DNA from: Gordonia asplenii
GTDB lineage: Bacteria > Actinomycetota > Actinomycetes > Mycobacteriales > Mycobacteriaceae
Assembly: GCF_012933505.1 (NCBI RefSeq)
Contig: NZ_JABBNB010000001.1
Span: 124,001-188,000 of the forward strand
Length of the DNA: 64,000 nt
Reading direction: 5' to 3'
The notes below the pieces were generated by a model. The model was not told the origin of the DNA and made no database searches. It saw only the letters and a list, made by a program, of their open reading frames with translations. Every line of letters begins with the position of its first letter. The first letter of the stretch is position 1. The position numbers and the translations under genes were made by a program. Below, piece after piece: positions 45,636 through 54,373 of the stretch.

Positions 45636-45683
45636 GGTCGTCGCTTGTGATTTTTGCAGTGTTGCCCTGAAAGGAGGCCAGCG

Positions 45684-46544
45684 ATGGCCCGACGTAAGAA
45701 CACGATGACGGTGCTGCGCACCGAGAAGCTCGGCGCACACATGGTGCGGGTATACCTCGGCGGCGACGGCTTCGACGATTTCGTGCCCGCCCAGCTCGAC
45801 GACGCCGGCGCCTGGGACACCGACATGTACATCAAATTCATCTTCGCGCCCGACGGTGTCGTGATCCCCGACGACTTCTCGCCGCGGGCCGGTCGTGACA
45901 TGTTCGCGCCGCACGAGCAGCCGGTGCTGCGGACCTACACCGTGCGCCGCTACGACGCCGCCAACCGGGAGATCGCCGTCGACTTCGTCGTACACGGCGA
46001 CGAGGGGATCGCCGGACCGTGGGCCGCGTCGGTGCAGCCGGGGGCGTCGATCGACTTCTTCGGTCCGGGCAGCGGCTACCGGCCGCGGGCCGATGCGCCG
46101 TGGCACCTGTTCGCCTCCGACGAAGCCGGCCTTCCCGCGGTCGCCGCGGCACTGGAAGCGTTGCCGGACGACGCGATCGCGAAGGTCTTCATCGAGGTCG
46201 CCGGGCCCGACGACGAGCTCGACCTGACCGCGCCCGCGGGCACCGAGATCACGTGGGTGCATCGCGGCGGCGGGTCGAACGAGGTCGCCGACGACGCGGC
46301 GGGCGATAACGCGCCTCTCATCGCGGCGGTCCGCGACGCCCAGTGGCTCGACGGCGAACCGCAGGTCTTCATCCATGGCGAGGCCCAGGCGGTCATGCAC
46401 AACCTGCGGTCGTATATCCGCAAGGAGCGCGGCGTCGGAGCGAAGAATGCGTCGATCTCCGGCTACTGGCGTCGCGGACGCACCGAGGAAGGCTTCCGCG
46501 AGTGGAAGGCCGAACTCAAGGCCGCCGAATCGGCGCCGGCCTGA
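45684..46544 (+). CDS. viuB: Siderophore-interacting protein (ferric-siderophore reductase)
   Basis: A 286-residue SIP-family flavoprotein that releases iron from imported siderophores. The FAD-binding region contains the QPVLRTYTVRRYD segment (RxYT) and the family-specific C-terminal NASISGYWRRGRTEEGFREWK. AAAGGAGG at 45670-45677 fixes the ATG at 45684. Its placement before xerC equals that of viuB in M. tuberculosis. It marks the return to the conserved backbone after the catabolic island and is preceded by an iron box. Confidence 0.92.
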   Translation: MARRKNTMTVLRTEKLGAHMVRVYLGGDGFDDFVPAQLDDAGAWDTDMYIKFIFAPDGVVIPDDFSPRAGRDMFAPHEQPVLRTYTVRRYDAANREIAVDFVVHGDEGIAGPWAASVQPGASIDFFGPGSGYRPRADAPWHLFASDEAGLPAVAAALEALPDDAIAKVFIEVAGPDDELDLTAPAGTEITWVHRGGGSNEVADDAAGDNAPLIAAVRDAQWLDGEPQVFIHGEAQAVMHNLRSYIRKERGVGAKNASISGYWRRGRTEEGFREWKAELKAAESAPA

Positions 46545-47572: not shown

Positions 47573-48226
47573 ATGCGCCGACTCCTGCTCCCGTTCGTGC
47601 TGCTCGCCACCGCGCTGGCGATCCCGGCTCCGGCCAGCGCGGCACCGGTGCCGCCGGTCTCGGCGACCGCCGCGGCAGAGGGACTGCTCGACGTCCGGTC
47701 CGTCGTGCCCGACGCCGTCGTCGACCTTCGTTATGCGACGCCGGACAACTTCGTCAAGCAGCAGCTCTATCCGACCGGCGCGCGCTGCCTGGTCCATCAG
47801 TCGATGGCGCCCGGGCTGCGGACCGCCGCCGACACGCTCCGCGCGCAGGGCGATCGGCTCGTCTTCTGGGACTGCTACCGACCGCATTCGGTGCAGGTGC
47901 ACATGTATCAGGTTGTGCCCGATGCCAATTGGGTCGCCAAGCCGACCGCCTACGCGCGCAGCCATGAAGCGGGACGCTCGGTGGACGTGACTCTCGCCGC
48001 CGCTGACGGCCGACGCCTCGAAATGGGCACCGGCTTCGACGACTTCACCGCCCGAGCCCATGCCTACGCCACCGATGGGGTCGACGCCGCGGCCGTCGCC
48101 AACCGCGCTCGACTCCGCACGGCGATGCAGGCCGGCGGACTCTCGCCGTACAGCGGCGAATGGTGGCATTTCGACGGACCGGGCGCTGGCGTCGACCGAC
48201 CGATCCTGCGCGCAGCCGTCAACTGA
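47573..48226 (+). CDS. Secreted VanX-type D-Ala-D-Ala dipeptidase
   Basis: A 217-residue exported zinc peptidase of the M15D family. A clear signal peptide occupies residues 1-23 (RRLLLPFVLLATALAIPAPASA). The zinc and catalytic motifs are SHEAGRSVDV (SxHxxGxAxD with Ser for Ala) and GEWWHFD (Glu and His). Secreted members generally trim cell-wall peptides rather than give vancomycin resistance. An in-frame ATG at 47534 overlaps the xerC stop, but the signal peptide favours 47573. Its 3' end overlaps the facing M23 gene by 8 bases. Confidence 0.85.
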   Translation: MRRLLLPFVLLATALAIPAPASAAPVPPVSATAAAEGLLDVRSVVPDAVVDLRYATPDNFVKQQLYPTGARCLVHQSMAPGLRTAADTLRAQGDRLVFWDCYRPHSVQVHMYQVVPDANWVAKPTAYARSHEAGRSVDVTLAAADGRRLEMGTGFDDFTARAHAYATDGVDAAAVANRARLRTAMQAGGLSPYSGEWWHFDGPGAGVDRPILRAAVN

Positions 48227-48725: not shown

Positions 48726-49170
48726 GGTCTTTAGACGCAGCGGAGCGCCGATTGGATCCATCCGATTCTCTCTGGTTGAGCTGGGATTCCCCCGCTGGTT
48801 GAGCCGGGATTCCCTCCGATGGTTGAGCCGGGCCGAAGCGTTAGCGAAGGCCCGTGTCGAAACCCCCTTCCCCCGCTGGTTGAGCCGGGCCGGAGCGTTA
48901 GCGAAGGCCCGTGTCGAAACCACGCAAGTCGGCGGTGCCAGCGCAACCGATCACCTTTAGATAGTCGAGAAGTTCGTCTTGCGGTGGTTTCGACTCGCTG
49001 CGCTCGCTCAACCAGCGGGTGGGTGTCTTGCTCGCTCACCGCAACCAGCCGACGTGTCTCGCCCGCTCAACCAGCGGAGGTGTCGCGCTCGCTCACCGCA
49101 ACCAGCGGAGACCGAACGCGGTCGCGATGGTCAACGGTTCGTTGTCACGGGTGGGGCTGGTGAGGCGGTA
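48726..49170. repeat. Intergenic repeat island (GGTTGAGC/GTCGAAACC family)
   Basis: No gene. Two 44-base direct repeats at 48821-48864 and 48878-48921 differ at one base; each runs from GGTTGAGCCGGGCCG to GGCCCGTGTCGAAACC. Partial units lie at about 48794-48809. In opposite orientation, 48986-49014 reads GGTTTCGACTCGCTGCGC...CTCAACCA, followed by shorter CTCGCTCACCGCAACCAGC copies to about 49107. Such intergenic repeats are common in Gordonia-like genomes. The inverted arrangement could form large hairpins ending the rSAM operon. Confidence 0.75.
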
Positions 49171-50415
49171 TCAGGGCGTCGGCCAGTCCGCGGGCCAGCG
49201 AATCGCGTCGGCGGTCAATCGAGCGGTGTCCCGCGGTGGCCACTGCGCGTCGGCCGGCTCGGTCACCATGGTGAATCGTCCGTAGTCGAACGGGAGCCCA
49301 TCGGCGGCCCCGACCGGGATCAGGCGTTCCCGCAACCCCTCTCGTTGCAGCGTGAGTGCGCGGTGGTGGCAGAGCGGATTGTTGCCGCGCCGACCGAACA
49401 GCGTGTGCGCCGACCACGAACACCCTCCCCGGCACGTGTCCGCATACTCGCAGGTCGCGCAGAAGCCCCACAGTCCGTCGCGTGCATCCGCGCCGGGTCT
49501 GCGCAGGTTGAAAGTCAGTTCGGGTGCGGTCGCCTTGATGTCGGCGATGCGGCGGTCGCGGACGTTGCCGCCGGTGTATGGCGCACTGGGCAGGGACGGA
49601 CATCCTTTGATCGCGCCGTCGGCCTCGATGCCGAGCGTGGTCACACCGGCTTGGCAGCCCTGCCATGACCCGTCGGAGTCCCGGAACCGCAGCAGACTCT
49701 CGTCGGGCCCGTGATAGCCGAGGCTGTTGGCGAGGTAGACCTGCACGCCGTCGGCGACCGACCGCCGCGCGATCCGACTGATTACCGGAAACACCACCAG
49801 CAACTCAGGTGGTTGCAGCAGCAAGTCGGGATGGTCTGCGGCGCTGCCCATCGGAACGGTCAGCTGAAGCTGCCACGCGATTATGCCGAGTCTCGATGAC
49901 AGCACATCGTAGAGTTCGGGCAGGTCGACGGCGGTGCGACGGTTGACCTGGGTATTGCACGCCACCGCGAGGCCGGCGGCACGCAAATGGTCGGCGGTTC
50001 GTAGGCACGACTCCCAGGAGCCGGTGCGGCCGCGCAACGCGTCGTGCGTGGCTGCCATGCCGTCGATCGAGATCGATGCCTGCGTGATCCCGGCCTCCCA
50101 CATGCCGTGCGCCATCGCGGCGCTGAGCTTGTATCCGCCGGTGGTCACGGTGCAGCGCATGCCTCTTGCCGTGATGGCGGCGGCGATCTGCAACCAATCC
50201 CGACGCAGGAATGCCTCGCCTCCGATCAGCGTGACCTCTTCGATGCCCACTTCGGCGAGCTGGTCGACGACGTCGAGGGCTTGCGCGGTGGACATCTCGT
50301 CGGGCCGGGCACTGCCCGCCCGCGACCCGCAGTGCGAGCAGGCCAGGTTGCAGGCCAGGGTCAGCTCCCAGACCGCATAGGTGCGGCGCAGCCGGGGACG
50401 GGAATCGGTGCTCAT
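49171..50415 (-). CDS. Radical SAM/SPASM enzyme
   Basis: A 414-residue radical SAM protein. The cluster motif is CNLACSHC at about residues 18-25, inside WELTLACNLACSHCGSRAG. The partial TIM barrel contains TLIGGEAFLRRDW and SISIDG. The C-terminal SPASM part has additional cysteines in GCQAGV, GCPSLP, FCATCEYADTCRGGCSW and NPLCHH, enough for auxiliary clusters. Such enzymes often modify ribosomal peptides. The ATG at 50415 overlaps the stop of the pseudokinase gene (50412) by four bases, so the two are translationally coupled. Substrate unknown. Confidence 0.85.
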   Translation of the reverse strand: MSTDSRPRLRRTYAVWELTLACNLACSHCGSRAGSARPDEMSTAQALDVVDQLAEVGIEEVTLIGGEAFLRRDWLQIAAAITARGMRCTVTTGGYKLSAAMAHGMWEAGITQASISIDGMAATHDALRGRTGSWESCLRTADHLRAAGLAVACNTQVNRRTAVDLPELYDVLSSRLGIIAWQLQLTVPMGSAADHPDLLLQPPELLVVFPVISRIARRSVADGVQVYLANSLGYHGPDESLLRFRDSDGSWQGCQAGVTTLGIEADGAIKGCPSLPSAPYTGGNVRDRRIADIKATAPELTFNLRRPGADARDGLWGFCATCEYADTCRGGCSWSAHTLFGRRGNNPLCHHRALTLQREGLRERLIPVGAADGLPFDYGRFTMVTEPADAQWPPRDTARLTADAIRWPADWPTP

Positions 50416-51806
50416 CGGCGGTCCCGCCGCGAGAACCAGCGTCGACGCGGCGCCGAGTCGCGGTTGAACACCGGTGGGCCACCGTAGACGGGACGCGGCG
50501 ATGGGGGCTCGTCGCCGCGCCACACGGGCGGACCTCCGTAGACGGTGAGGGACGGCGGGGGATCATCGTCGAGCCACACGGGCGGACCTCCGTACACCAG
50601 GGCGGGTGGCGGGGGAGCACTGTCGCTCGGTCGTACCGGTATCGACGGGCCGTCGCTGACCGACCGCGCGCGCTCGTCTGCGTCACGCCGATACGCCTGC
50701 GCAATCCAGTACGCCTGCCCATCGAAGGGCAGGCGCTCGGGAGCCCGCTGCCACGACACCGTCGGCACTCGCGGCACACTGCGGTCGGTGTCGTCAGGAC
50801 GCTCGGCGTCGCTCGCCGCCGCACCGAATTCGGTGTCGATCAACGACTTCGCGACCGCAACGGCTTGCTCAGCAGTCTCGTAGCGGCCGACCTCGGTGTC
50901 GCCGAACGTGACGACGAAATATCCAGATCCCCGATTCGGTGATCGTCCGGTCCGCCGCTGACCGGTGCCCGCCTGGTCGCGACCGGCGTCAGCAGCGACG
51001 AGTAGTGCGTCGGCGAACTCGCCGCACGACTGGTAGCGGTCGTTCGGGTCCTTGGCCAAGACCCGCGCGAACACACCGTCCATCGCCGGCGGCAGATGCA
51101 TGGCTCGCCGCCACGCCGACGGTGGCGGCCGATGTAGGTGCCCGTCCGCCACTTCCGCGAACGACAGCCCAGGGTAGGGAGGTTGGCCGGTGAGCAGATG
51201 AAAGGCCGTGCAGCCCAGCGAGTAGATGTCGGCTCGGTTGTCCACGACACCCCCGTTGCATATCTCAGGACTGGCGAAGGCTGCGGCATGCCACGGCATC
51301 GTGGTCTCATCGAGCCATGTGCTGCCCTCGGGGCCGAAGCCCGCGAGTTTGACGGTTCGCAACCCGCCGTCCTCGTCGAACACCGCGCGGACAAACATGG
51401 GATGGACCCTGAGGTGGACGATCCCGCGGGTTCGCCACGCGTGGTCCAGGCCGGCACCCACCGCTGCCACGATCTCGATCGCCCGACCGAGTGGAATCGA
51501 TCGGGGCGAGAGCACCAACCGATCGGCGCCAGCGTCGATATGTTCGGTGCACCGCCACAATTGGCCGCTGTTCTCGCCCCAGGCATGCACCGCGGCGATG
51601 TTCGGATGTGCGGTGGCCGCGAGAGCCTCCGCGTTGCGAACCGCGGTCGCGACAAACGATCGGCTGGCGCAGAGCTGTGGGCTGAACACGATCAGCTCTT
51701 CGGTGAGCGCCGATCCTGGGCGCTGGACGAGATAGCTCGCCGCACCCGAGTGTGGACGAATAGGTTCGAGAATGCGGTAGCCGGCGAAGACGTCTCCGTT
51801 GATCAT
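50412..51806 (-). CDS. Pseudokinase with C-terminal YGGPPV(W/F) triple repeat
   Basis: A 464-residue cytosolic protein with a kinase fold (residues 8-270) that has lost the catalytic residues. The Gly loop reads RPHSGAASYLV, no VAIK Lys is seen, HRDxKxxN is replaced by HLRVHPMF, and DFG by GFG in KLAGFG. SPEICNGGVVDNRADIYSLGC is retained. A small domain (GYFVVTFGDTEVGRYETAEQA) follows, then a Pro-rich tail with three 18-residue units beginning VYGGPPVW, VYGGPPVW and VYGGPPVF. It lies between an active kinase gene and a radical SAM gene. Confidence 0.8.
   Translation of the reverse strand: MINGDVFAGYRILEPIRPHSGAASYLVQRPGSALTEELIVFSPQLCASRSFVATAVRNAEALAATAHPNIAAVHAWGENSGQLWRCTEHIDAGADRLVLSPRSIPLGRAIEIVAAVGAGLDHAWRTRGIVHLRVHPMFVRAVFDEDGGLRTVKLAGFGPEGSTWLDETTMPWHAAAFASPEICNGGVVDNRADIYSLGCTAFHLLTGQPPYPGLSFAEVADGHLHRPPPSAWRRAMHLPPAMDGVFARVLAKDPNDRYQSCGEFADALLVAADAGRDQAGTGQRRTGRSPNRGSGYFVVTFGDTEVGRYETAEQAVAVAKSLIDTEFGAAASDAERPDDTDRSVPRVPTVSWQRAPERLPFDGQAYWIAQAYRRDADERARSVSDGPSIPVRPSDSAPPPPALVYGGPPVWLDDDPPPSLTVYGGPPVWRGDEPPSPRPVYGGPPVFNRDSAPRRRWFSRRDRR
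50466..50594 (-). repeat. 54-base tandem repeats encoding the pseudokinase tail
   Basis: Three in-frame copies spaced 54 bases apart. CCACACGGGCGGACCTCCGT occurs at 50520-50539 and 50574-50593 on the plus strand, and a diverged copy starts near 50466. On the minus strand they encode VYGGPPV followed by W/F, two variable residues and Asp. Confidence 0.8.
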
Positions 51807-51866
51807 CTGTGTCCCTCGGACCTGCTGGTCGCAGTCATGTGGTGGATAGTTGTGTGGGGCCGCGCG

Positions 51867-53909
51867 TCATTTGAGCGCGATTGCCGAGACGGTGTTGTCG
51901 TCGCCATTGGTGACGTATGCGGTGGTGCCGTTGGGGGTGATCGCAACATCCTGTGGCAGATTGCCGACGGGAATTGTGGCGGTCAGCTTGCCGCTGGCGA
52001 TGTCGATCACTGACACCGTGTTGCTGTCGTAGTCGGTTACAAAAGCGGTGGCGCCGTTGGGAGTGATCGCCACATCCTGCGGCAGACTGCCGACGAGGAT
52101 CGTAGCGGTGACCCTGCCGCTGGCGGTGTCGATCACTGACACGGTGCCCGCAAATGTGGCGGTGTTATCAGTCACATATGCAGTGGTGCCGTTGGGGGTG
52201 ACCGCCACCCCCTCCGGGGAATTGCCGACGGGGATGTTTGCGGCGACTCTGTCGCTGGCGGTATCGATCACTGAGACGGTGTTGTCGCCGACATTGACCA
52301 CGTATGCGGTGGTGCCGTTGGGGGTGATCGCCACACCACTCGGAGCTTTGCCCGCAGGGATAGTTGCGGTGACCCTGCCGCTGGCGGTGTCGATCACCGA
52401 CACTGAGCTAGCATACGAGCCACCGCCGTTGGTCACATATGCGGTGGCGCCGTTGGGGGTAATCGCCACGCGCTGTGCGTTATTACCGACGGGGATGGTT
52501 GCGGTGACTTTGCCAGTGGCGGTGTCGATCACCGACACCGTGTTGCTGTAGTCATTGGTCACATAGACATTCATGCCGTTGGGGGTGACGGCCACATCGT
52601 ATGGATACACGCCGACGGGGATGGTTGCGGTGACTCTGCCGGTGGCGGTGTCGATCACCGACACTGTGTTGTCGGCGCGATTGGTCACGTATGCGGTAAC
52701 TCCGTCGGGGGCGACTGCCACACCAGATGGCGACCGCCCGACGCGGATGGTGGCCGTCACGTGTGGAGTAGTCGCAGCGCTGACGGGAGTTGACCGCGCA
52801 CCGCCGTGCGAGTCGGCCAATTTCGTGATAGCGATCCCGTAGACGGTCGCGACCAGCGCCGCGACCGCGGCGATGATCGCGATGCGCTTGCCCAATCGGC
52901 GGCGGGAGGCGATCGGGTCTGCGGCGACGGCCGGTCGAATCTGAGTCGTGCCCGCGACTTCGGCGCTGTCGCCGCCAGCAGGTCCCGGGAGGGACTCGGC
53001 TCCGGCTGGCGTCGATTGCGGCCGGACCGCGGTCGGTGTATGTACGGGATCCACAGTGATCACGGCCTGCAACTCGTCCACGAACTCGCCGCAGGTCTGG
53101 TACCGATCCTCCGGGTGCTTGGCGAGGACTCGCGTGAACACCGCGTCCAGGCCCGCGGGGAGGTGCCGTGCCCGCGCAGTGACCGCCGGAATCGGCCAAC
53201 GGAGATGCGCGGCCATCAGCGCCGACATCGTCGTCGCGTCTTCGTACGGGGTGCTGCCGGTGAGGAGCTGGAACGCCGTGCAGCCGAGCGAATAGACGTC
53301 GGCCCGATTGTCGGTGAGACCACCGTCGAGTGCTTCGGGGCAGATGTAGGCCATGGTTCCCACGGCCATGCCGGTCGACGTCAACGACGTCGCCTCGCCC
53401 GCGGCCTTGGCGATGCCGAAGTCGGCCAATTTGACGGTCTTGAACGTGCCGTCGCCCCGACGAGCGATCAAGATGTTGGCGGGCTTCACGTCACGGTGGG
53501 TGATGCCGTGGTCCTGCCAGGCATAGTCCAGCGCGGCCGCGGCACCTGCGATCAGTTGGAATGCGGTGTCCAGGGGTAGCGCTCGGTGCTCACGAAGCAG
53601 CTGCGCGGCATCGACGCCGTCGACGAACTCCATCGCCAACCACAGGCGGCCCTCGAATACGCCGCGGTCGTAGAGCACGACGATATTCGGATGGCTCAAC
53701 GGCGCGAGCAGGTCCGCCTCCCGCTGAAACCGCAGCGCGAAGTCCTTGTTGCCGCTCATCGGCAGGTTAAGCAGCTTGAGCGCATCGCGACGCGGCAGAC
53801 GTGGGTGCTCGACCAGGTACACCTCGCCCATACCGCCGGAACCCAACTGCCGGATCACCCGATAGCCCGCGATGCTCTGCTCAGCCTCCGCGACGCCCTG
53901 CTCAGCCAT
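51867..53909 (-). CDS. Membrane Ser/Thr protein kinase with YVTN beta-propeller
   Basis: A 680-residue PknD-like receptor kinase. The cytosolic kinase domain is intact: GSGGMGEVY at residues 23-31, Lys45, HRDVKPAN at 138-145, DFG at 163-165, and a Thr/Ser-rich activation loop. After a linker comes one membrane helix (RIAIIAAVAALVATVYGIAI), then an extracellular propeller of seven repeats of the type VTATIPVG...VAITPNGTTAYVTN...NTVSVIDTASG. The start at 53909 has AAAGGGA upstream. It heads the minus-strand operon with the pseudokinase and radical SAM genes; 60 bases separate it from the former. Confidence 0.9.
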   Translation of the reverse strand: MAEQGVAEAEQSIAGYRVIRQLGSGGMGEVYLVEHPRLPRRDALKLLNLPMSGNKDFALRFQREADLLAPLSHPNIVVLYDRGVFEGRLWLAMEFVDGVDAAQLLREHRALPLDTAFQLIAGAAAALDYAWQDHGITHRDVKPANILIARRGDGTFKTVKLADFGIAKAAGEATSLTSTGMAVGTMAYICPEALDGGLTDNRADVYSLGCTAFQLLTGSTPYEDATTMSALMAAHLRWPIPAVTARARHLPAGLDAVFTRVLAKHPEDRYQTCGEFVDELQAVITVDPVHTPTAVRPQSTPAGAESLPGPAGGDSAEVAGTTQIRPAVAADPIASRRRLGKRIAIIAAVAALVATVYGIAITKLADSHGGARSTPVSAATTPHVTATIRVGRSPSGVAVAPDGVTAYVTNRADNTVSVIDTATGRVTATIPVGVYPYDVAVTPNGMNVYVTNDYSNTVSVIDTATGKVTATIPVGNNAQRVAITPNGATAYVTNGGGSYASSVSVIDTASGRVTATIPAGKAPSGVAITPNGTTAYVVNVGDNTVSVIDTASDRVAANIPVGNSPEGVAVTPNGTTAYVTDNTATFAGTVSVIDTASGRVTATILVGSLPQDVAITPNGATAFVTDYDSNTVSVIDIASGKLTATIPVGNLPQDVAITPNGTTAYVTNGDDNTVSAIALK

Positions 53910-54076: not shown

Positions 54077-54373
54077 CTAGAAATCCTCCGAGGAGACCAC
54101 CCGGCGTCGCGCCGAGTTGATTTCGATCTCGGGACGGCGGGCCACCAGGTGCTCGATCGAGTCGAGGACGTCGGCGACATGTCGCTGATCCGGCCCGACG
54201 ACGCCGGCCCCGATACCGGCGCGTCGGTGCAGGTCGTGGTTGCCGACCTCGGCGGCGCTCACCGAGTATTTGCGTTTGATCTCCGCGATGACGGGCCGGA
54301 TCACCGACCGCTTCTCCTTGAGCGAGTGCACGTCCCCTAACAAGACGTCGAATTCGATCCAGCCGATCCACAT
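54077..54373 (-). CDS. DUF503 (YlxP) family protein
   Basis: A 98-residue small protein of the DUF503 family, usually found near translation genes. It starts MWIGWIEFDVLLGDVHSLKEKRSVIRPVI and includes YSVSAAEVGNHDLHRRAGIG. ATG 54385 is another possible start. Its function is not established. It is divergent from rpsB and lies 167 bases upstream of the kinase gene, in a gap that holds no other gene. Confidence 0.75.
   Translation of the reverse strand: MWIGWIEFDVLLGDVHSLKEKRSVIRPVIAEIKRKYSVSAAEVGNHDLHRRAGIGAGVVGPDQRHVADVLDSIEHLVARRPEIEINSARRRVVSSEDF

What the first reader, a model, noticed from the sequence alone, without database searches (positions are those of the whole stretch)
49171..53909. 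Kinase / pseudokinase / radical SAM operon: candidate undescribed peptide-modification and signalling system
Three minus-strand genes in a row encode a membrane Ser/Thr kinase with a seven-bladed extracellular YVTN propeller, a cytosolic pseudokinase with a repetitive tail, and a radical SAM/SPASM enzyme. The last two overlap by four bases. Radical SAM/SPASM proteins usually modify peptides, and neighbours are often their substrates. The arrangement suggests that a sensed outside signal, relayed by phosphorylation or pseudokinase binding, is tied to radical modification of the pseudokinase tail. The set is inserted between the M23 gene and rpsB, where M. tuberculosis has none of it. Gene content is seen; the joint function is inference.
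Basis: partly seen in the sequence, partly recalled or inferred. Interest (0 to 1): 0.85.

Follow-up and report, generated by a model that had tools for sequence, protein, structure and literature searches.

The report
Pseudokinase fused to splicing-enzyme substrate
A dead kinase in this actinobacterium carries, fused to its end, a protein that in a relative stands alone beside a radical enzyme of the backbone-splicing kind, so it is probably rewritten at three tyrosines into chemically reactive sites; the chemistry is known, the kinase fusion looks new.

Summary
In detail: on the minus strand, a membrane Ser/Thr kinase with a seven-bladed YVTN propeller, a pseudokinase with three VYGGPPV repeats, and a radical SAM/SPASM enzyme overlapping it by four bases. 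A DUF503 gene in front was missed. In 9 of 9 fetched same-genus relatives M23 and rpsB are neighbours without any of these genes.

The interpretation changes. The enzyme's best curated match is TIGR04103 (585 bits, cut-off 725); the characterised splicease PlpX is, by recall, of this family. Spliceases cut tyramine out of Xaa-Tyr-Gly (about -135 Da), leaving a backbone ketoamide. In 10 of 10 Frankiaceae-type loci a P[VIA]YG[GA]PP site lies just upstream of the enzyme, and in a Mycobacterium parmense-like genome a stand-alone 183-aa protein matches pseudokinase residues 297-460 (E 2e-22). So the 'repetitive tail' is a whole precursor fused to a dead kinase. No such kinase domain was found in 21 of 21 other loci; the fusion was seen only here.

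Best reading: splicease-like enzyme plus pseudokinase-carried substrate. Kinase control is open; no PlpY-type partner was found; the chemistry is inferred. New variant of a known kind; interest 0.6.

The parts
49171..50415 (-). Radical SAM/SPASM enzyme, 414 aa, splicease-like (nearest curated family TIGR04103)
   Evidence: PF04055 79 bits; TIGR04103 585 bits over nearly the full length, below its 725 cut-off; C22, C26, C29 and SPASM C254, C272, C319, C322, C328, C332, C349 invariant in the 13-row alignment
50412..50415 (-). ATGA overlap of pseudokinase stop and radical SAM start
   Evidence: sequence read directly
50412..51806 (-). Pseudokinase-precursor fusion, 464 aa
50994..51788 (-). Pseudokinase domain (residues 7-271), catalytic residues lost
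   Evidence: 40% identity to the neighbouring kinase over 268 aa; residue census
50817..50930 (-). Presumed leader domain of the fused precursor (residues 293-330, holding YFVVTFGDTEVGRYETAEQAVAVAKSLIDTEFG)
   Evidence: homologous to the N-terminus of the stand-alone protein in L104; leader role inferred
50577..50597 (-). XYG site 1, VYGGPPV (residues 404-410)
50523..50543 (-). XYG site 2, VYGGPPV (residues 422-428)
50469..50489 (-). XYG site 3, VYGGPPV (residues 440-446); its DNA differs from sites 1-2 at synonymous positions
50415..50453 (-). Cationic C-terminus APRRRWFSRRDRR, resembling KRRWFGK (L104) and GWLRRLFRR (Frankia-type precursors)
51867..53909 (-). Membrane Ser/Thr kinase with seven-bladed YVTN propeller, 680 aa
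54077..54373 (-). DUF503 protein, 98 aa, first gene of the inserted set
   Evidence: PF04456 103.8 bits; only match in the own genome; not found at this place in 9 of 9 relatives

Best explanation
The radical SAM/SPASM enzyme is a splicease-like maturase and the last 170 or so residues of the pseudokinase are its precursor substrate. It most likely binds the GRYET-type leader domain, acts at three Val-Tyr-Gly sites in the proline-rich tail, removes a tyramine unit (C8H9NO) and rejoins the backbone, leaving an alpha-keto-beta-homovaline at each site. Because no protease or exporter is among the four inserted genes, the product is probably a protein, not a released peptide: a dead kinase domain with a tail armed with up to three electrophilic ketoamides. 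The dead kinase domain then serves as the docking or localising part, plausibly toward the neighbouring propeller kinase. Shown: gene order, homology of the substrate part to a stand-alone protein beside a related enzyme, loss of the catalytic residues, intact cluster ligands. Inferred: the reaction, the leader role, the fate of the product, any link to the kinase.
For: Best curated match TIGR04103, nearly full length; a cyanobacterial relative that passes this model (853 bits) has an upstream Nif11 precursor ending IALYGLPPELF. PlpX, an IPR026482 SPASM enzyme, excises tyramine from Xaa-Tyr-Gly (PMC11002830, passages); PlpXY acts naturally on MYG and LYG, and PlpA2-derived tags such as PIRPGYGLPI (accepted, within longer tags, in two FtsZ constructs; a 10-residue PlpA2 core with GYG was also accepted on an Affibody; PMC10533398, passages) resemble PRPVYGGPPV here. 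In 10 of 10 Frankiaceae-type loci a P[VIA]YG[GA]PP site lies within about 350 nt upstream (enzyme in 10 of 35 genomes of that family). In the M. parmense-like genome a free 183-aa protein, overlapping the enzyme gene, matches pseudokinase residues 297-460, E 2e-22. In the own genome the tail has no second copy: four other hits at E 0.05 or worse, none with YGG[PA]P. Site 3 differs from sites 1-2 at synonymous positions while the motif is kept. Window and M. parmense enzymes fall in one 13-row clade, support 100/99.
Against: No mass or activity data. The enzyme scores below the TIGR04103 cut-off (585 of 725), as do the four actinobacterial relatives scored (597 to 643), so other chemistry on the same motif is possible. 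In the same table of PMC10533398 most FtsZ tag placements, the LYG tags included, were not accepted by PlpXY. PlpX works with the RRE partner PlpY; the 71-aa gene behind the Nostoc enzyme, which I take to be PlpY-like from its place, has no convincing match in the window or the 18 other loci searched (best E 0.06). PlpX itself could not be aligned here. The fusion was seen in one genome only (1 of 2927 candidates, itself). The neighbour of the closest enzyme, Tsukamurella soli (81%), could not be reached (0 of 16 genomes of a presumed Tsukamurella genus).
Confidence: 0.72

Rival explanations
1. Same substrate, other chemistry: the enzyme oxidises or cross-links the Val-Tyr or Tyr residues (for example a 2 Da cross-link or a mycofactocin-like reaction) instead of excising tyramine.
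For: Below the TIGR04103 cut-off and no PlpY-type partner found; radical SAM enzymes do several reactions on Tyr-containing peptides, mycofactocin among them (PMC8326336, passages).
Against: The nearest model by a wide margin is TIGR04103 (585 bits; mycofactocin maturase 107.8 of 265); the Pro-X-Tyr-Gly-x-Pro shape is that of PlpXY substrates.
Confidence: 0.18
2. Ordinary peptide pathway: the tail is modified, cut off by an unlinked protease and released; the dead kinase is only a long leader.
For: Stand-alone precursors exist in relatives; leader proteases can be encoded elsewhere (PMC11117315 raises this for its own cluster, passage).
Against: No protease or exporter among the four inserted genes (the M23 gene next door is older: it is there in 9 of 9 relatives). 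In the Frankiaceae-type flanks, compared from three reference loci, apart from frames over the enzyme gene only one gene recurred, a methyltransferase shared with three other loci at varying place (PF04672).
Confidence: 0.2
3. One reading: the propeller kinase senses an outside signal and through the pseudokinase controls the radical modification.
For: Gene order with a 60-nt gap and an overlap; kinase, pseudokinase and enzyme are absent together in 9 of 9 relatives.
Against: No such kinase domain near the enzyme in 21 of 21 other loci; a kinase of the same propeller layout exists in another genus (P0205), its neighbours not looked at; no phosphorylation or binding evidence.
Confidence: 0.2
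4. The set is a decaying accident: a dead kinase fused by chance to a precursor, with no present function.
For: Enzyme in 1 of 59 genomes of the genus; fusion seen once.
Against: Open frames, intact enzyme cysteines, three sites kept with synonymous differences, four-base overlap; the dead domain is full-length and keeps E181, D193 and R257.
Confidence: 0.07

Closest known systems
Spliceotide system PlpXY of Pleurocapsa sp. PCC 7319 (tyramine-excising splicease)
   Same: SPASM radical SAM enzyme and Xaa-Tyr-Gly sites, in the PlpA2 tag with proline on both sides; precursor and enzyme in one cluster (PMC11002830 and PMC10533398, passages)
   Different: No Nif11 or nitrile-hydratase-like leader; no PlpY-type partner found; substrate fused to a pseudokinase; enzyme below the TIGR04103 cut-off
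Frankia/Pseudofrankia-type precursor plus TIGR04103-like enzyme (no name known to me)
   Same: 59-65% identical enzyme, P[VIA]YG[GA]PP sites, cationic C-terminus
   Different: Small free precursor without kinase domain; different N-terminal part (LPRGP..EQ..)
Mycobacterium parmense-like locus (L104)
   Same: 69% identical enzyme, overlapping precursor homologous to the post-kinase part
   Different: Precursor stands alone; no kinase or DUF503 match in 18 kb; one VYGGPP and one VCGGPP site
GDL-motif/DUF1843 peptides with TIGR03913 maturase
   Same: Related enzyme (404.5 bits); some of the peptides have RPYG or KPYG near the start
   Different: Small DUF1843 precursors; enzyme with a C-terminal cysteine-rich extension; well below cut-off here
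Mycobacterial PknB/PknD-type kinases with YVTN propeller
   Same: The neighbouring kinase has the layout of P0205 of Tsukamurella tyrosinosolvens
   Different: Here it precedes a pseudokinase-precursor fusion

Membership tests
Splicease, PlpX type (nif11-class peptide maturase 3) | Radical SAM CxxxCxxC and SPASM cysteines | tested here: met
   Ten cysteines invariant in the 13-row alignment
Splicease, PlpX type (nif11-class peptide maturase 3) | Reaches the TIGR04103 equivalog cut-off | tested here: not met
   585 of 725 bits; nearest model all the same. Not filed as a TIGR04103 member; called splicease-like. That IPR026482 of PlpX equals TIGR04103 is recalled.
Splicease, PlpX type (nif11-class peptide maturase 3) | Adjacent precursor with Xaa-Tyr-Gly sites | tested here: met
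   Three VYG sites in the overlapping gene; such sites also in 10 of 10 Frankiaceae-type loci and L104
Splicease, PlpX type (nif11-class peptide maturase 3) | RRE partner PlpY | tested here: not met
   No convincing match of the Nostoc 71-aa neighbour in the window or the other loci; that this neighbour is PlpY-like is inferred from its place; an unlinked or dissimilar partner is not excluded
Splicease, PlpX type (nif11-class peptide maturase 3) | Tyramine excision, about -135 Da | not testable with these tools
   needs co-expression and mass spectrometry
Proteusin/Nif11 precursor | NHLP or Nif11 leader | tested here: not met
   No such Pfam match in the post-kinase part (E up to 5) or in the stand-alone protein (E up to 1)
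GDL-motif system (TIGR03913) | Cut-off 591.75 and DUF1843 precursor | tested here: not met
   404.5 bits; no DUF1843 match
Mycofactocin maturase (TIGR03962) | Cut-off 265 bits | tested here: not met
   107.8 bits
Active Ser/Thr kinase (for 50412-51806) | VAIK Lys, HRD Asp, DFG Asp | tested here: not met
   I39, R133, G156; 31 of 31 aligned relatives keep Lys, Asp, Asp
Active Ser/Thr kinase (for 51867-53909) | VAIK Lys, HRD Asp, DFG Asp | tested here: met
   ALKLL, HRDVKPAN, ADFG in the translation and pairwise alignment

The most novel reading that the evidence does not exclude
A signalling-type protein made partly of beta-amino acids: a pseudokinase whose tail is permanently converted by a splicease into three backbone ketoamides, working inside the cell as a reversible covalent trap (for example of a protease) that is positioned or gated by a propeller-bearing sensor kinase.
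Probability: 0.28. Interest if true: 0.87.

Novelty: new variant of a known kind. Interest (0 to 1): 0.6.

Why it matters
Spliceases are known from peptide pathways and as labelling tools; what the modified products do in their own cells is, as far as I know, largely open. A natural substrate fused to a kinase-fold protein behind a sensor kinase, with a free-standing homologue in a relative, is a concrete case in which a cell may arm one of its own signalling-type proteins with an electrophile. It also offers enzyme-substrate pairs without a recognised PlpY gene that can be tested in E. coli.

Tried and rejected
Rejected: that the pseudokinase is the regular partner (no such kinase domain in 21 of 21 other loci; tblastn with both window kinases, and a profile of 31 kinases, whose only hits were the two window genes; Pfam shows an APH-type phosphotransferase with DFYGLPP near its start directly upstream of the distant Tropicibacter enzyme, which I leave unexplained); that its tail recurs in other kinases (of the 119 other listed hits out of 982, 6 carry a single TYGVP in another part, none VYGGPP; the region search found only itself, 1 of 2927 candidates); that it is a recent copy of the adjacent kinase (40% identity, against 35-43% for the five best database kinases); DUF6193 for the leader domain (E 0.012 and 0.033, below cut-off); a viral source (one viral-contig scan, no relative); plasmid copies of the precursor part (no match).

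Dropped or limited: the M. tuberculosis comparison was replaced by nine same-genus relatives; four same-order genomes and one without an rpsB match were not fetched. L013 (32% identity) was left out of the census as not orthologous. One of the ten Frankiaceae-type enzyme genes (L034) matches in two pieces in different frames and another (L032) has only 163 nt of upstream flank. In one search the query for the M15 dipeptidase was in a wrong frame and is not used. Searches used the enzyme with one extra codon in front (49174-50418), and the stand-alone protein with one extra codon (184 aa instead of 183).

Led nowhere: structure prediction of the pseudokinase was accepted after busy answers (63, 67, 69), still unfinished, reported as interrupted, and not accepted again, so no model is cited. 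Print record of kinase-linked spliceases: searches listed no title or abstract start on it, and the passages that I saw do not mention it; no paper was read whole. The two main papers (Morinaka 2018, Scott 2022) are not held and were seen only as reference entries, so whether Scott 2022 lists kinase-fused precursors is unknown to me.
Full report
What is there. The minus strand reads DUF503 (54077-54373), a 680-aa Ser/Thr kinase (51867-53909), a 464-aa pseudokinase (50412-51806) and a 414-aa radical SAM/SPASM enzyme (49171-50415); the gaps are 167 and 60 nt and the last pair overlaps by ATGA. The kinase has its Lys, HRD and DFG motifs, a hydrophobic segment and seven propeller blades. The pseudokinase has lost the glycine loop, the VAIK Lys, the alpha-C Glu, the HRD Asp with the Lys and Asn that follow, and the DFG Asp, each kept by 30 or 31 of 31 aligned relatives. 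Its last part holds VYGGPPV three times; site 3 differs from sites 1 and 2 at synonymous positions.

Where it came from. The enzyme was found in 1 of 59 genomes of the genus, 1 of 301 of the family, 11 of 394 of the class, the ten others all from one family that holds Frankia and Pseudofrankia, 0 of 16 of a genus taken to be Tsukamurella and 2 of 396 of a genus taken to be Mycobacterium; the family, class and last genus were sampled, not searched whole. In 9 of 9 same-genus genomes fetched, M23 and rpsB are neighbours and none of the four genes is there. The genome itself is unnamed; I did not determine its species.

What the enzyme is. Its best NCBIfam model is TIGR04103, nif11-class peptide maturase 3, 585 bits over nearly the whole length against a cut-off of 725; next is the GDL-motif maturase TIGR03913, 404.5 of 591.75. 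Relatives score 597 (T. soli), 608 (M. parmense), 628 and 643 (Frankia-type and Pseudofrankia), 683 (L009), 853 (Nostoc plasmid) on TIGR04103. The radical SAM and SPASM cysteines are present. A tree of 36 relatives puts it with T. soli (100/100) in a 13-row clade with M. parmense (100/99); the neighbouring branch is the Frankia-type clade (joint branch 92/90), then a mainly cyanobacterial one. Papers state that PlpX, an IPR026482 SPASM enzyme, with the RRE protein PlpY excises tyramine from Xaa-Tyr-Gly and leaves a ketoamide (PMC11002830, passages; PMC10533398, passages). The loss is C8H9NO, 135.068 Da by formula (printed as 135.0757 in PMC10533398). That IPR026482 corresponds to TIGR04103 is my recollection.

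What the tail is. In 10 of 10 Frankiaceae-type loci a P[VIA]YG[GA]PP site lies within about 350 nt upstream of the enzyme. In eight of them the protein could be cut at a shared LPRGP motif and is 95-192 aa from just before it, with a cationic C-terminus; a ninth (L033) has the same motif and a similar end; the tenth contig has only 163 nt of flank. In the M. parmense-like genome G927 (enzyme 69% identical, and at zero distance from the named M. parmense protein in the tree) the overlapping upstream gene encodes a 183-aa protein that aligns with pseudokinase residues 297-460: the block F..TF...EVGRYET.E.AVA.A.S.IDTE at the start, VCGGPPQW and VYGGPPPW in the middle, KRRWFGK at the end (34% over 192 columns, E 2e-22 for this single comparison). 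Hence the 'tail' is a complete precursor with its own presumed leader, fused behind a dead kinase. More distant relatives show XYG near the enzyme as well: Nif11 ..IALYGLPPELF in Nostoc, a 451-aa protein with five PMYG sites in a MAG, VIYG and IIYG in Mesorhizobium, RYGMP in G1025, RPYG or KPYG in one of the DUF1843 peptides of each of the two Azospirillum loci read; in Aureibacter one of three DUF1843-annotated peptides has PYG and two have YA; in Tropicibacter the nearest candidate is DFYGLPP near the start of an APH-type phosphotransferase, which is not a clear precursor.

The fusion is rare. No kinase domain of this family lies near the enzyme in 21 of 21 other loci of 5.5-18 kb; apart from the precursor match in L104, the only match to a window kinase gene was a weak propeller hit in L033. 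Residues 285-464 found only the query itself among 2927 candidates; candidates are limited to about 255-812 aa, which hides free precursors and suits kinase fusions. The tail has no second copy in the own genome (four other hits at E 0.05 or worse, none with YGG[PA]P).

How it most likely works. Enzyme and substrate are made together through the overlap. The enzyme reads the leader domain and converts each Val-Tyr-Gly to an alpha-keto-beta-homovaline-Gly link, up to -405.2 Da in all. Spliceotide products are described as protease inhibitors (PMC11117315, passage; PMC11002830, passage), so a reversible covalent trap for a protease or another nucleophile is the simplest role. The dead kinase domain would place this tail, perhaps at the neighbouring sensor kinase. 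This paragraph is inference except for the cited facts.

Limits. No chemistry was measured. The cut-off and the PlpY feature were tested and not met, so I call the enzyme splicease-like, not a member of TIGR04103. The library held neither primary splicease paper, so novelty of the fusion rests on the sequence searches above and on paper searches.

Noticed in passing
window 54077-54373: DUF503 gene is the only match in the genome and sits in the inserted set, in front of the kinase; its role is unclear.
   Followed up: partly
window 48772-49109: Cluster of short direct and inverted repeats (CTGGTTGAGC.. / ..GCTCAACCAG) between the radical SAM gene and the M23 gene, at one edge of the insertion.
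   Followed up: partly
window 47642-48226: D-Ala-D-Ala dipeptidase (PF01427, 200 bits) beside the M23 peptidase gene.
   Followed up: no
window 45654-46544: Siderophore-interacting FAD-binding protein (PF08021, PF04954).
   Followed up: no
L104 7714-8265: The M. parmense-like precursor keeps one VYGGPP site and has one VCGGPP site in which the Tyr is Cys.
   Followed up: partly
L105 7829-8446: A more distant enzyme (46%) in a genome taken to be Mycobacterium has an upstream 205-aa protein with MRYGMPL followed by a GDL-like stretch, without a Pfam match.
   Followed up: partly
L009 4401-5756: 451-aa protein with five PMYG sites next to a 53% identical enzyme: another protein-sized apparent substrate.
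   Followed up: partly
L036 3745-4716: APH-type phosphotransferase gene directly upstream of the Tropicibacter enzyme, overlapping it by four bases, with DFYGLPP near its start: possibly another kinase-fold partner.
   Followed up: partly
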